This document shows positions 7,749 through 11,483 of a stretch of 64,000 bases of DNA, in pieces. The notes under the pieces are model-generated. The model searched no databases, was not told where the DNA came from, and saw only the letters and a program-made list of their open reading frames with translations. The translations under genes and the position numbers were made by a program. The stretch's first letter is position 1; each line of letters begins with the position of its first letter. Source of the DNA: Flavobacterium segetis (GTDB taxonomy: Bacteria > Bacteroidota > Bacteroidia > Flavobacteriales > Flavobacteriaceae); NCBI RefSeq assembly GCF_900129575.1, contig NZ_FQWE01000003.1, positions 248,001-312,000 on the forward strand, in the 5' to 3' direction.

Positions 7749-7756
7749 TATCTTTG
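7749..7756 (+). promoter_or_regulatory. Possible -7 element (TATCTTTG) of tdh
   Basis: An exact TAnnTTTG match lies 19 bp before the preferred tdh start at 7775. This supports that start over the upstream in-frame codon at 7754, which would overlap the promoter. No clear TTG is present at the -33 spacing. Confidence 0.4.
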
Positions 7757-7774
7757 CAACTCAAAAATCAAAAA

Positions 7775-8713
7775 ATGAGTACAAAAATATTGATTATAGG
7801 CGCTTGCGGACAAATTGGCACTGAACTAACTCACAAACTGCGTGAAATTTATGGTACTGATAACGTTATCGCATCAGATATTAGAAAATTGAATAATGAT
7901 GTTGTTAATTCTGGACCTTTTGAAGTGATAAATGCATTGGATTTTAACCAAATTGAACATCTTGTAGAGGTTCATAAAATTGACGAGATTTATCTAATGG
8001 CTGCCTTATTATCAGCTACAGCAGAGAAAAACCCAGCATTTGCGTGGGATTTAAATATGAATTCACTGTTTCATGTTTTGAATTTGGCCAAAGCCAAGAA
8101 AATAAAAAAAATATTTTGGCCTTCCAGTATCGCCGTTTTTGGACCAACCACGCCTAAGGAAAATACACCACAATATACTATTATGGAACCTTCAACTGTA
8201 TATGGAATCAGCAAGCAAGCAGGTGAAAGATGGTGTGAATATTACTACAATATTTTTGGTGTCGATGTGCGAAGCATTCGTTACCCTGGTTTAATTAGCT
8301 GGTCATCTCCTCCTGGTGGTGGAACTACTGATTATGCAGTGGATATTTTTCATAAAGCACTTGCTGATAAAACATACGAATGTTTTTTGTCAGCAGAAAC
8401 TAAAATGCCAATGATGTACATGGACGATGCAATTGCTGCAACCATTCAAATTATGCAAGCACCAGCGGAAGAAATAAAAATTCGTTCTTCTTACAATTTA
8501 GCGGCAATGAGCTTTACGCCAACTGAAATTGCGGCCGAAATTCAGAAACATATTCCAGAATTTACAGTTACTTACAAACCTGACTTCCGTCAAAAAATTG
8601 CTGATAGCTGGCCTGCGAGTATCGATGATGCTGAGGCTAGAAAAGATTGGAACTGGGAACATAAATATGATCTGGAAAGTATGACGGTGGATATGCTGAA
8701 GCATTTGAAATAA
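7775..8713 (+). CDS. tdh: L-threonine 3-dehydrogenase, short epimerase-like type
   Basis: A 312-aa NAD-dependent protein of the UDP-galactose epimerase-like extended SDR family. It has the Rossmann motif GACGQIG at the N-terminus, the catalytic Tyr/Lys in YGISKQAGE, and SPPGGGTTDYAVD plus MPMMYMDDAI, typical of the psychrophile and flavobacterial threonine dehydrogenases that oxidise threonine to 2-amino-3-oxobutyrate. Start 7775 (MSTKILIIG) is chosen because the upstream in-frame codon at 7754 overlaps the putative -7 box. The last 46 codons are present a second time at 11293-11430, 2.6 kb downstream. A strong terminator follows. Family confident, substrate inferred from the family. Confidence 0.88.
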   Translation: MSTKILIIGACGQIGTELTHKLREIYGTDNVIASDIRKLNNDVVNSGPFEVINALDFNQIEHLVEVHKIDEIYLMAALLSATAEKNPAFAWDLNMNSLFHVLNLAKAKKIKKIFWPSSIAVFGPTTPKENTPQYTIMEPSTVYGISKQAGERWCEYYYNIFGVDVRSIRYPGLISWSSPPGGGTTDYAVDIFHKALADKTYECFLSAETKMPMMYMDDAIAATIQIMQAPAEEIKIRSSYNLAAMSFTPTEIAAEIQKHIPEFTVTYKPDFRQKIADSWPASIDDAEARKDWNWEHKYDLESMTVDMLKHLK

Positions 8714-8728
8714 CATATTGAATATCTT

Positions 8729-8766
8729 AAAAAAGGAGGCAAAACAAATGTTTTGCCTCCTTTTTT
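8729..8766 (+). terminator. Rho-independent terminator of tdh
   Basis: A long GC-rich stem (AAGGAGGCAAAACA paired with TGTTTTGCCTCCTT) followed by a T run, 16 bp after the tdh stop. Confidence 0.85.
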
Positions 8767-8842
8767 AAATCCTTACTTTGCAATTTCAAAAAAATTACAG
8801 ATTTCTGTTCGTTAGCTTTTAATTGATATTTTTTGTATTTAC

Positions 8843-8931: not shown

Positions 8932-9348
8932 TTAATCTTTTCCAATTACCCTGATACGGATCACAGTAAGGTTACCGTATTTTTCCACGTCTTCTTTTGT
9001 CCATAGAAATTCTTTATCTTTTGCTCTTTTATCAAAATCCCATTCTACAGGTTCTTTTACATATACATATAGGCCTAAGTGATTTTTCCCTATTGCTCTT
9101 CCGCTTTTAAATTCCTCCAAATCTATGAATCTAAAAGAGAAATAGGACGGAAAATCTACAGTTCCAAACGCAGTCTTTATCTCGGGTTTGATTTCGTTTA
9201 ATAAATATTTTAGTGGTTTATTTAAAAACTGTTGCTCATTTATTTTTAATTTATGAGCATCGTTAGCCGTTTGTACCATTTGTTGTGCTTTACAGCTATA
9301 GTTCATCAAAAGAAATAATATTACGAAAATTTTGAGTGTGTTTTTCAT
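8932..9348 (-). CDS. Small lipoprotein, tandem copy 1
   Basis: A 138-aa exported protein starting at MKNTLKIFVILFLL; an upstream in-frame codon at 9375 would overlap the preceding gene, so 9348 is preferred. The signal peptide ends in SCKAQQ, suggesting lipidation at that Cys, though the -3 residue is not ideal. The body, with KLKINEQQFLNKPLKYLLNEI and FSFRFID and ending FTKEDVEKYG-like then IRIRVIGKD, is nearly identical to the next gene, with differences clustered around residues 80-100. I do not recognise the family. The position downstream of a JAMM-motif lipoprotein suggests a partner or immunity-type role, which is inference. Confidence 0.75.
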   Translation of the reverse strand: MKNTLKIFVILFLLMNYSCKAQQMVQTANDAHKLKINEQQFLNKPLKYLLNEIKPEIKTAFGTVDFPSYFSFRFIDLEEFKSGRAIGKNHLGLYVYVKEPVEWDFDKRAKDKEFLWTKEDVEKYGNLTVIRIRVIGKD

Positions 9349-9361
9349 GATTTTTATTCTA

Positions 9362-9775
9362 TTAATCTTTTCCAATTACCCTGATACGGATCACAGTAAA
9401 GTTACCGTATTTTTCCACGTCTTCTTTTGTCCATAGAAATTCTTTGCCCTTTGGTCTTTTATCAAAATCCCATTCTATAGGTTCTTTTACATATACATAT
9501 AATCCCAAGGAATTATTTTCAACAGGTCTACGTCTTATTTCCTCCGAATCTATGAATCTAAAAGAGAAATAGGACGGAAAATCTAAAGTTCCAAATGCAG
9601 TCTTTATCTCGGGTTTGATTTCGTTCAATAAATATTTTAGTGGTTTATTTAAAAACTGTTGCTCATTTATTTTTAATTTATGAGCATCGTTAGGCGTTTG
9701 TACCATTTGTTGTGCTTTACAGCTGCTGTGTACTAATAAAAATAGTATTGCTAAAGTTTTAATTATATTTTTCAT
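9362..9775 (-). CDS. Small lipoprotein, tandem copy 2
   Basis: A 137-aa paralogue of the adjacent downstream gene; stop codons of the two are 430 bp apart, so the unit duplicated in tandem. Signal peptide MKNIIKTLAILFLLVHSSC, then the same KAQQMVQT start to the mature part. Differences from copy 1 concentrate in the signal peptide and in a short middle segment (SEEIRRRPVENNS against LEEFKSGRAIGKN), which may be the part that diversifies. It begins 18 bp after the stop of the JAMM-motif lipoprotein gene and is probably co-transcribed with it. Confidence 0.78.
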   Translation of the reverse strand: MKNIIKTLAILFLLVHSSCKAQQMVQTPNDAHKLKINEQQFLNKPLKYLLNEIKPEIKTAFGTLDFPSYFSFRFIDSEEIRRRPVENNSLGLYVYVKEPIEWDFDKRPKGKEFLWTKEDVEKYGNFTVIRIRVIGKD

Positions 9776-9793: not shown

Positions 9794-11086
9794 TTAGTTA
9801 CAAGGTGTTCTTGTCGTGTAGGTTTTAGAGCCATCTGAATTTGTGGTTTCTAGAGTTTTAATGGGTTTAAATTCTCCATTGCTATCTTGTTTAAGCAATG
9901 TTATACCTGCATTGTATTTATCTAAAATAAAAGCGATTGCCGCAGTCTTACCCTCGATACTAGACCCCATTGGAGTCACGAGAACCTGCAGTTGATTAAA
10001 TATAAAATCAGGAAATTCAGGGTTATATCCCGGTGAATGATCTGCGGGGTAAGCAGCCACAAAGGCTTGTGCGGCTGCCAAGTCCGTAACTACAGCAGCA
10101 TAAACCTCCCCATCAGTTGCTATAAAGCTAGTGGTAAAATTGCTATTGTTCGCGTTTAATGCTATACTAGCATATATATCTCCACCTGAAATTTGCGTAT
10201 TATTAGGATGATTATGTAAAGCGCCAAACGCTCCTGGCCATGTGGTGTTTACGGCCACGCTATTTTGTCCCCCACTGCGCATAGGGGCTTGAGTAATATT
10301 TCCGTTTACATCCTTACCAAGTGTAATACTATGCTCAATATTTGCACTGGCACTATTAATGCTGGCTTTAGCAGATAAGTAGGTTGTACTCTGAGTAGCA
10401 ATAGAAATTTCTTTGGCAGTTATACAAGGGTCAATTAAGTTAGGAACACAGCTTCCATTTTGATCTTGAATATATCCTTCCGGACAATTTCCTCCCTCAC
10501 CGCCCCCACCACCTCCATCAGGAGCTTCTTGCTCGGGTGTGCCGTTACTACCTCCTGAAGAACACTCCCACCAAGTATAAATTAATGTTCTTTCGCCTGT
10601 GTCATTATTAGTTAAAAAATAACCCCATAATTCGCAACCTGCGATTTTTGATGTTTTTAAGGCTTGCTTGCTAACTTTTTTTTCTTTATTTACTGTTAAC
10701 TTGTTATTATTATCGTAGAAATGATAAGTTTCTTTATTAAAGGTTTCTTTTTTTAAGGAAAAATATACTTTTAAATTATAATTAAATGATTGATTTGATT
10801 TATTTTCTGTAACTGCAATAAAAGGGAATATATATTTCTCTGTTTTACCGTTTTTGACGACTTTTATTGAAAGCGAACCTTTTGAAAATAAAGGAACATA
10901 TAATGTGTCATTATTAAAGTTACCATTATCCCATTTTAATTCTCCTACAAAATATAAATTTTGTTTTATTTTTATAGGATTATTGTTAAAAAAATCCCTT
11001 GCATCCTCTATATTGAAATTGTTGACACTGTTTTCAATATTTAAGACTTCCTCTTCTTGACAATTACTTAGCGAAAATACTAACAA
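9794..11086 (-). CDS. Lipoprotein with C-terminal JAMM/JAB-like metalloprotease motif; start gated by G8 tract
   Basis: An open frame of at least 430 aa. Hydrophobic residues lead to a lipobox (LSNC); an N-terminal beta-rich region is followed by a Gly-rich linker (residues 190-200), a short CPEGYIQDQNGSCV module and a C-terminal domain with HNHPNNTQISGGD at 291-303. HxHP followed by S-x-x-D is the JAMM metal-binding pattern (one residue shorter than RadC), with E251 as a candidate catalytic Glu. There is no in-frame ATG: 11086 is a TTG inside the signal peptide. The only plausible ATG (11183) is one base out of frame, separated by a run of eight G (see 11160-11183). Lipidated surface or toxin-like enzyme is inference; the function is unknown. 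Confidence 0.7.
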   Translation of the reverse strand: MLVFSLSNCQEEEVLNIENSVNNFNIEDARDFFNNNPIKIKQNLYFVGELKWDNGNFNNDTLYVPLFSKGSLSIKVVKNGKTEKYIFPFIAVTENKSNQSFNYNLKVYFSLKKETFNKETYHFYDNNNKLTVNKEKKVSKQALKTSKIAGCELWGYFLTNNDTGERTLIYTWWECSSGGSNGTPEQEAPDGGGGGGEGGNCPEGYIQDQNGSCVPNLIDPCITAKEISIATQSTTYLSAKASINSASANIEHSITLGKDVNGNITQAPMRSGGQNSVAVNTTWPGAFGALHNHPNNTQISGGDIYASIALNANNSNFTTSFIATDGEVYAAVVTDLAAAQAFVAAYPADHSPGYNPEFPDFIFNQLQVLVTPMGSSIEGKTAAIAFILDKYNAGITLLKQDSNGEFKPIKTLETTNSDGSKTYTTRTPCN

Positions 11087-11159
11087 AAATAATATTGAAA
11101 TTTTTAAAATAGAACTTCGAAATTTTAGGAATTCAAAATTAGGGAAATTTCTTAAAAAT

Positions 11160-11183
11160 GGGGGGGGATAATTTTTTTATCAT
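11160..11183 (-). promoter_or_regulatory. G8 homopolymer between ATG and the JAMM-lipoprotein frame (candidate phase switch)
   Basis: Read on the minus strand, ATG at 11183 opens MIKKLSPP and then runs through eight C (G8 at 11160-11167 on the plus strand) into a stop 15 codons from the start. Removing one base (or adding two) joins this ATG in frame to a 29-residue leader, a hydrophobic signal segment and the lipobox of the downstream gene. This is the layout of a slipped-strand contingency locus, or else a homopolymer sequencing error. Confidence 0.6.
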
Positions 11184-11292: not shown

Positions 11293-11430
11293 CAACCTGA
11301 CTTCCGTCAAAAAATAGCTGACAGCTGGCCCGCTAGTATCAATGATGCTGAGGCTAGAAAAGATTGGAACTGGAAACATAAATTTGATTTAGAAACAATG
11401 ATCGCGGATATGCTGGAGCATTTAAGATAA
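11293..11430 (+). pseudogene. Duplicate 3' end of tdh (46 codons including stop)
   Basis: Gap-free copy of the tdh terminal 138 bp (8576-8713); by hand I count 120 of 138 bases and 36 of 45 residues identical. Changes are mostly synonymous or conservative (for example KHKFDLETM against EHKYDLESM) and the stop is intact, so the copy diverged while functional and not by decay in place. It has its own terminator. It marks the far boundary of an inserted or recombined segment. Confidence 0.9.
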
Positions 11431-11445
11431 TTATCGTTTATAGAT

Positions 11446-11480
11446 AAAAAGGTCGCAAAAACATTTTTGCGACCTTTTTT
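11446..11480 (+). terminator. Terminator following the duplicate tdh end
   Basis: Stem AAAAAGGTCGCAAAAA paired with TTTTTGCGACCTTTTT. Same architecture as the tdh terminator at 8729-8766 but a different core. It probably also serves the convergent gene ending at 11484. Confidence 0.85.
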
Positions 11481-11483
11481 AAT

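What the first reader, a model, noticed from the sequence alone, without database searches (positions are those of the whole stretch)
11160..11183. G8 homopolymer separates the only good ATG from the lipoprotein frame: candidate phase-variable switch
The large lipoprotein gene has no in-frame ATG. The ATG at 11183 reads MIKKLSPP and then terminates, because the eight-base C run (minus strand) is one base too long; seven or ten would join it to the signal peptide and lipobox. A long mononucleotide run at the start of a surface lipoprotein gene, changing the frame by single-base slippage, is the classic contingency-locus design. Phase variation is common for surface proteins in some Bacteroidota but usually by DNA inversion, so a homopolymer switch would be unusual.
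Basis: seen in the sequence. Interest (0 to 1): 0.75.

Follow-up and report, generated by a model that had tools for sequence, protein, structure and literature searches.

The report
Repeat-run switch on a lipoprotein gene
A run of eight Cs puts the start codon of a Flavobacterium lipoprotein gene (probably a weapon paired with a protector gene) out of frame, and several related genes in other species carry different short repeats at the same spot, which suggests that these bacteria switch such genes on and off at random by repeat slippage.

Summary
Minus-strand ATG 11183-11181 and the 460-codon lipoprotein frame are one base out of register across C8 at 11167-11160, and that frame has no usable ATG. 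The run is the only one of 8 or more C/G in the 3.46 Mb genome. Relatives make the case. A relative in G129 has its own C8 between ATG and lipobox, also out of frame. Others carry (AAAC)n, a pentamer or heptamers directly after the ATG; no such unit is a multiple of three. By a fixed rule, 10 of 113 family members and 0 of 359 control ORFs have such repeats; 9 of the 10 are out of frame. An OFF/ON pair has dN/dS 0.20. The protein joins a shared N-domain to an exchangeable C-domain; the window's C-type is followed by the same small gene in 16 of 16 members, against 1 weak match in 69 with other C-types. That is polymorphic-toxin architecture. Best reading: a slipped-strand contingency locus, OFF in this assembly, controlling a putative effector with cognate immunity. 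Mechanism known; setting not described in the papers listed. Length variation within one strain was not testable.

The parts
11181..11183 (-). ATG start codon, out of register with the lipoprotein frame
11139..11183 (-). short frame read from the ATG in the assembled phase (MIKKLSPPIFKKFP, stop)
11160..11167 (-). C8 run, proposed slippage switch; the only C/G run of 8 or more in the genome
9794..11176 (-). lipoprotein open frame, 460 codons plus stop, open through the C run
11060..11122 (-). signal-peptide-like stretch ending in lipobox LSNC (Cys codon 11062-11060)
   Evidence: translation; signal peptide and lipobox judged by eye
10556..11062 (-). N-terminal domain shared by the wider family (alignment A2)
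9797..10441 (-). exchangeable C-terminal domain with HNHPxxxxxSxxDIY motif (alignment A1)
9362..9775 (-). small lipoprotein-like gene 18 nt downstream, candidate cognate (immunity) protein
8932..9375 (-). second copy of the candidate cognate gene, about 83% identical in protein to the first
11294..11482 (+). 83% copy of the 3' end and terminator of the dehydrogenase-family gene at 7754-8713, flanking the module on the far side
7754..8713 (+). intact NAD-dependent epimerase/dehydratase-family gene on the near side of the module

Best explanation
The C8 run is an ON/OFF translational switch of the slipped-strand (contingency-locus) kind, captured here in the OFF phase. In this phase ribosomes starting at 11183 stop after 14 codons; a run in the other register would carry the ATG into the signal peptide and the whole lipoprotein. 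The gene product is most likely a polymorphic effector: a lipid-anchored protein with a shared N-domain and an exchangeable, perhaps peptidase-like C-domain, followed by two copies of a cognate small lipoprotein gene that would protect the producer. Shown from sequence: the frame relation, the uniqueness of the run, the recurrence of different repeat units at the same place in some relatives, maintained coding frames, and the strict pairing of C-domain type with downstream gene. Inferred: slippage in living cells, lipoprotein export, toxicity, immunity, and that the cognate genes stay expressed when the effector is off.
For: Only C/G run of 8 or more in the genome, and it sits exactly between ATG and frame. 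Of 33 distinct C8/G8-or-longer runs in 21 genomes (recounted), two lie between an ATG and a long frame that it misses, and both are in this family: the window and G129 (which looked at frames of 60 codons or more reaching the run). Tandem arrays directly after the ATG and out of frame: G178 heptamer x4.4, G131 heptamer x7.9, G047 pentamer x10.6, G105 (AAAC)16 and (AAAC)10, G208 (AAAC)5, G294 (AAAC)8, in frames of 385-485 codons. In frame: G129 (AAAC)13.8, and G105 (AAAC)3 in a gene cut short by a stop. 10 of 113 members against 0 of 359 control ORFs, Fisher 4.5e-7; repeat against out-of-frame state 9/1 v 11/92, Fisher 2.5e-7. The G178 heptamer array occurs at one place in that genome. All 20 (AAAC)5-or-longer arrays in 80 genomes lie at gene starts. 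dN/dS 0.195 between the OFF gene of G129 and the ON gene of G105. Pairing with the downstream gene 16 of 16 v 1 weak match in 69.
Against: No second strain and no reads in the collections used: heterogeneity at 11160-11167 was not seen. 90 of 113 members have an ordinary in-frame ATG and no repeat by the strict rule, so the switch is not a general property of the family. 11 of the 19 automatic OFF calls have no strict repeat; some have A/T runs, others plain stops or decay (for example G373), so frame loss also happens without slippage. Of the 33 C8/G8 runs, 31 do not show the switch layout. C8 is short as contingency runs go (recalled). dN/dS could not be computed for the window gene itself. 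The toxin reading rests on architecture: the C-domain has no significant Pfam, NCBIfam, PDB-sequence or PADLOC match, and the structure model failed (mean pLDDT 37.7).
Confidence: 0.76

Rival explanations
1. A decaying gene: the frame was lost once by an indel in the run, and the lipoprotein is a pseudogene on its way out.
For: Clear decay exists in the family: G117 has several stops, G373 has a stop just before the signal peptide and G395 one in the N-domain, and G223 holds a 65-codon remnant at L190. Unidirectional loss would look the same in one genome.
Against: 460 codons stay open after the break; the break lies exactly in the genome's only C8; the same kind of break recurs at strict repeats in eight other family genes; dN/dS is 0.20 for an OFF/ON pair of relatives; the cognate genes are open.
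Confidence: 0.12
2. Sequencing or assembly error in the run: the true length puts ATG and lipoprotein in one frame all the time.
For: Homopolymers are the commonest error in some platforms (recalled); reads were not available.
Against: The genome is listed as 100% complete with 0.08% contamination, which speaks for the assembly in general only. Single-base error cannot explain tandem arrays of 20-64 nt at the same place in relatives. Even then the C run would remain a candidate slippage site.
Confidence: 0.07
3. Frame is rescued without DNA change: transcriptional slippage or ribosomal frameshifting on C8 gives a constant low level of protein, or translation starts at a non-ATG codon (TTG 11086 or an ATT).
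For: Runs of eight can promote polymerase slippage (recalled); the lipoprotein frame is open on both sides of the run.
Against: TTG 11086 leaves only eight residues before the Cys. Tandem 4-, 5- and 7-mers in the relatives are not typical transcriptional-slippage sites but are DNA-slippage sites (recalled).
Confidence: 0.05

Closest known systems
Slipped-strand contingency loci of Neisseria, Haemophilus, Campylobacter (for example the phase-variable lipoprotein NalP, named in a passage of PMC3796261; other details recalled)
   Same: Repeat with unit not a multiple of three early in the coding region, frame otherwise open, envelope protein, relatives in both phases
   Different: A genus of Bacteroidota, for which a 2025 review (passages read, PMC11868660) describes Bacteroides invertases and has no occurrence of Flavobacter or toxin; target is a putative effector; mixed repeat units within one family
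SitA polymorphic lipoprotein toxins of myxobacteria (PMC5562445, abstract and passages read)
   Same: Lipoprotein, shared N-region with unrelated C-domains, cognate gene directly downstream, several per genome
   Different: SitA C-domains tested there are nuclease-type and act in the cytoplasm; delivery by TraA-dependent outer-membrane exchange; no repeat switch mentioned in the passages read; homology to the window gene not tested
CdiA, Rhs and MafB polymorphic toxins with orphan C-terminal/immunity modules (recalled; only a few passages of the MafB paper PMC4287609 seen)
   Same: Exchangeable C-domain with paired downstream gene; truncated C-domain modules each with a cognate gene in tandem in G047
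   Different: No large delivery protein; effector is itself a lipoprotein of roughly 350-590 residues
Invertible promoters of Bacteroides
   Same: Stochastic ON/OFF of surface features in Bacteroidota
   Different: No convincing inverted arms flank the start here: two terminator hairpins and weak, mostly A/T-rich pairs

Membership tests
Slipped-strand contingency locus | Simple repeat, unit not divisible by three, in the 5' coding region | tested here: met
   C8 between ATG and signal peptide; relatives with 4-, 5- and 7-nt units
Slipped-strand contingency locus | Rest of the reading frame kept open and under selection | tested here: met
   460 open codons; dN/dS 0.195 for the OFF/ON pair G129/G105; selection not computable for the window gene itself
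Slipped-strand contingency locus | Repeat number differs between relatives and both phases occur | tested here: met
   (AAAC) 16, 10, 8, 5 out of frame; 13.8 and 3 in frame; between species and paralogues only; no in-frame relative with a C run was seen
Slipped-strand contingency locus | Length heterogeneity within a strain with matching expression | not testable with these tools
   no reads, no second strain
Polymorphic toxin system | Shared N-terminal part with exchangeable C-terminal domains | tested here: met
   113 members with the N-domain, 16 with the window's C-domain; among 104 C-terminal parts 12 match SprT-like, 4 PPPDE peptidase, 2 BSP, 2 Peptidase_M91, 1 Tox-MPTase3, all weakly
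Polymorphic toxin system | Cognate gene directly downstream that goes with the C-domain type | tested here: met
   16 of 16 against 1 weak match in 69; 28 further members had too little downstream sequence
Polymorphic toxin system | Recognised toxin domain or shown toxicity and immunity | tested here: inconclusive
   no significant domain match for the window C-domain; activity not testable
JAB/JAMM metallopeptidase | E-x(n)-H-[ST]-H-x(7)-S-x(2)-D (recalled motif) | tested here: inconclusive
   E36, H76, H78, S85, D88 invariant in 17 sequences but N between the histidines and spacing x(6); no Pfam JAB hit, best is DUF4329 at E 0.059 in 2 of 17; model unusable
SitA lipoprotein toxins | Sequence relation to SitA, TraA-dependent transfer | not tested
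   no comparison run
Inversion-type phase variation | Inverted repeats flanking promoter or gene start | tested here: not met
   two perfect terminator hairpins; the other 13 pairs are 72-93% complementary, mostly A/T-rich and short; the longest is 32 nt at 81%

The most novel reading that the evidence does not exclude
Flavobacterium species carry a distributed arsenal of lipid-anchored polymorphic peptidase-type effectors, a subset of which is armed by chance, cell by cell, through slippage of whatever simple repeat lies after the ATG, while the paired protector genes stay on. A clone would then always hold armed and unarmed cells that are all immune.
Probability: 0.4. Interest if true: 0.85.

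Novelty: new variant of a known kind. Interest (0 to 1): 0.68.

Why it matters
Repeat-slippage switching is textbook in mucosal Proteobacteria, while phase variation in Bacteroidota is known chiefly as DNA inversion (recalled, and in line with the review passages). A slippage-driven repertoire in Flavobacterium, aimed at what look like interbacterial effectors and not at host-facing antigens, would extend contingency loci to bacterial warfare. It can be tested by amplicon length profiling. It also warns that annotation may call such OFF genes pseudogenes or start them in the wrong place.

Tried and rejected
DNA inversion was rejected: no convincing inverted arms. A usable alternative start was rejected: only TTG 11086, eight codons before the Cys. 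Structure of the C-domain: a two-sequence alignment gave mean pLDDT 37.7, so no fold search was made. A scan of viral contigs with the C-domain confirmed no relative. Defence-system, Pfam, NCBIfam and PDB-sequence searches gave nothing significant for the lipoprotein and its small downstream genes (the PDB search was for the C-domain only). A Bacteroidota promoter consensus (recalled) matches upstream of the ATG, but such matches occur about twice per kb per strand, so it is no evidence. The conserved upstream motif of relatives is absent from the window at up to 3 mismatches.

First control set rejected: 12 of 449 control ORFs had repeats (Fisher 0.005 against 10 of 113), but that set held loci fetched because they contain C8 runs, and one family member; one search left out all loci L085-L146 and any control sharing 30 nt with a family gene, and lowered the control ORF length from 150 to 120 codons, giving 0 of 359. 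Controls are mechanical ORFs, and their stretch (60 nt before to 140 nt after the ATG) is not the same as the family's (200 nt before the Cys). The filter also drops ORFs that start inside the end of a family gene; one of those, in L195, has (AAT)5.3, which cannot shift the frame. Three control repeats that were not C/G runs, (AAAAT)3.4, (AAATC)3.4 and (TCACATC)5.7, lay in the dropped loci L085, L124 and L143. The family count includes the window gene that raised the question. 17 of 130 distinct N-domain hits were dropped because the match began after profile position 6. Two automatic ON calls (L186 = G294, L188 = G200) are ON only through an ATG ten codons before the Cys; L186 was moved to OFF by hand in the 2x2 table, L188 was left in ON. 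L232 is a similar weak ON. The 2x2 table was typed in. For one search I gave 104 of 105 listed C-terminal parts (one, L221, was left out) and 8 of 113 members had under 80 residues after the N-domain.

Full report
On the minus strand an ATG at 11183-11181 is followed by MIKKLSPPIFKKFP and a stop, while the lipoprotein frame is open from 11176 to the stop at 9794, 460 codons, with its first ATG at codon index 298. The two frames overlap only from 11176 to 11139, and this overlap holds the C8 run at 11167-11160. The only listed start before the lipobox, TTG 11086, leaves eight residues before the Cys. A whole-genome pattern search finds one run of eight or more C or G in 3,463,995 bases, this one. 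An order-1 model on the window's composition predicts about five. The genome is probably Flavobacterium: a relative found by sequence lies in a record titled Flavobacterium sp. HJJ (L035), and a genome labelled same genus as the window (G062) has a contig of the same length and the same gene as a record titled Flavobacteriaceae bacterium (L034). The species was not identified.

What the gene is. The protein has a signal-peptide-like stretch, lipobox LSNC, an N-domain, a glycine-rich linker and a C-domain with HNHPxxxxxSxxDIY. The C-domain was found in 21 of 398 genomes of the genus and, in 397 genomes drawn from the family, only in the window's own genome. N-domain profiles found 46 of 398 genomes (A2) and 29 of 299 (A3), giving 130 distinct hits, 113 of which begin at the N-domain start. 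Their C-domains differ: of 104 C-terminal parts scanned, 12 match SprT-like, 4 PPPDE peptidase, 2 BSP, 2 Peptidase_M91 and 1 Tox-MPTase3, with E-values between 0.01 and 0.0002. The small gene after the window's lipoprotein has a homologue within 900 nt downstream in 16 of 16 members with this C-domain and in 1 of 69 others with at least 400 nt held, the one being a 22-residue match; 28 more had too little sequence. In G047 two C-domain modules without a signal peptide, each followed by a cognate gene, come after a full gene; in G288 a C-domain fragment is followed by another cognate gene. This is the anatomy of polymorphic toxin and immunity loci. That it is toxic is inference.

The switch in relatives. 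In G129 the relative has its own C8 between ATG and lipobox, out of frame, and the lipoprotein frame is open through the run for about 60 codons before the Cys. G129 has two C8 runs in all. In G178 a heptamer repeated 4.4 times follows the ATG, out of frame, and three copies of it are found nowhere else in that genome. G047 has a pentamer x10.6, G131 a heptamer x7.9, G105 (AAAC)16 and (AAAC)10, G208 (AAAC)5, G294 (AAAC)8, all directly after the ATG and out of frame. G129 has a second member with (AAAC)13.8 in frame; G105 has one with (AAAC)3 in frame, but cut short by a stop in the N-domain. With a fixed rule (tandem of three or more copies and at least 15 nt, or C/G of seven or more, in the 200 nt before the Cys) 10 of 113 members have a repeat and 0 of 359 control ORFs do (see Tried and rejected for the first control, 12 of 449, and for the dropped rows). 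Nine of these ten are out of frame, one of them placed there by hand, against 11 of 103 without such a repeat. A/T runs of seven to ten are also found at some OFF starts (G257, G284, G306, G109, G235), and runs of eight or nine at several ON starts; they are common in such genomes and I give them little weight. 90 of 113 members have an ordinary in-frame start and no strict repeat.

Beyond the family. Merging overlapping rows, the 80 genomes hold 20 arrays of five or more AAAC in 14 genomes; the window's genome has none. Five are family members above (G105 two, G129, G208, G294). Fifteen were examined. Five follow an ATG directly and are out of frame with a lipobox frame: two in G200 with frames of 629 and 586 codons, two in G007 whose frames are short (76 and 84 codons), one in G129 with a stop right after the array. 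Eight lie 10-18 nt before the ATG of one orthologous 431-residue protein with a lipobox-like start, with n of 15, 8, 20, 10, 16, 6, 5 and 14. Two lie 8 and 15 nt before the ATG of other genes. So 20 of 20 are at gene starts. The 33 distinct C8/G8-or-longer runs in 21 genomes are more mixed: only the window and G129 show the ATG/run/off-frame layout; the rest lie inside frames, in leaders or away from frames of 60 codons or more.

Selection. For the OFF gene of G129 against the ON gene of G105 dN/dS is 0.195 over 518 codons; seven other pairs give 0.25-0.47. The method is a simple count, several dS values are near or above 1, and for the window gene no close enough relative exists.

Mechanism. 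Replication slippage on the run would change its length by one and toggle the register. In the assembled phase the gene is OFF. The first cognate gene has its own ATG 18 nt downstream and could be translated in either phase; whether it is transcribed in the OFF phase is unknown. Roughly two thirds of phases would be OFF by chance; 9 of 10 strict-repeat members are OFF, which is compatible with costs of expression but not tested.

Literature. Ten searches of the held library listed no paper whose title or abstract beginning describes slippage-type phase variation in Flavobacterium or polymorphic lipoprotein toxins there. Four listings were cut (25 of 121, 15 of 16, 15 of 111, 15 of 51 papers). 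I read passages, not whole papers: PMC11868660 (no occurrence of Flavobacter or toxin), PMC5562445, PMC4287609, PMC3848433, PMC3796261 and PMC6676235. PMC3796261 mentions phase-variable NalP. Most subscription papers are not in the library, so absence there is weak evidence of novelty.

Verdict. The mechanism is of a known kind; its use on a polymorphic lipoprotein effector family in Flavobacterium appears to be a new variant.

Noticed in passing
window 8577-8768 and 11294-11482: The 3' end and terminator of the dehydrogenase-family gene (7754-8713) is duplicated at 83% identity on the far side of the lipoprotein module, so the module sits between direct copies. Part of the same remnant lies just upstream of family genes with another C-domain in G294 and G200 (L186, L188), pointing to a shared insertion site.
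   Followed up: partly
L160, L073, L059, L186, L188, L058, L192, L263 (two), L082, L265, L190: An upstream motif close to ATCACTAAAAGTGGGTATTGT lies 134-209 nt before the lipobox Cys in 12 family genes, 8 of which bear a strict repeat; it is absent from the window. Possible common regulator site.
   Followed up: partly
L300, L302, L303, L304, L307, L308, L309, L310: (AAAC) arrays of 5 to 20 copies lie 10-18 nt before the ATG of one orthologous 431-residue protein with a lipobox-like start in eight genomes, suggesting a second, leader-type repeat switch.
   Followed up: partly
L301: Two further large lipoprotein-like frames in G200 (629 and 586 codons) have (AAAC)11 and (AAAC)8 right after the ATG, out of frame.
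   Followed up: partly
L141 and L119: C9 between ATG and signal-peptide-like stretch in a G062 gene, and G8 inside the signal-peptide-like stretch of a 1016-codon frame in G276, both in frame: further candidate switches.
   Followed up: no
window 8932-9775: The candidate cognate gene is duplicated in tandem; one relative has eight matches in a row (L074).
   Followed up: partly
L058, L064: In G047 two C-domain modules lacking a signal peptide, each with a cognate gene, follow a full gene; in G288 a C-domain fragment is followed by a further cognate gene.
   Followed up: partly
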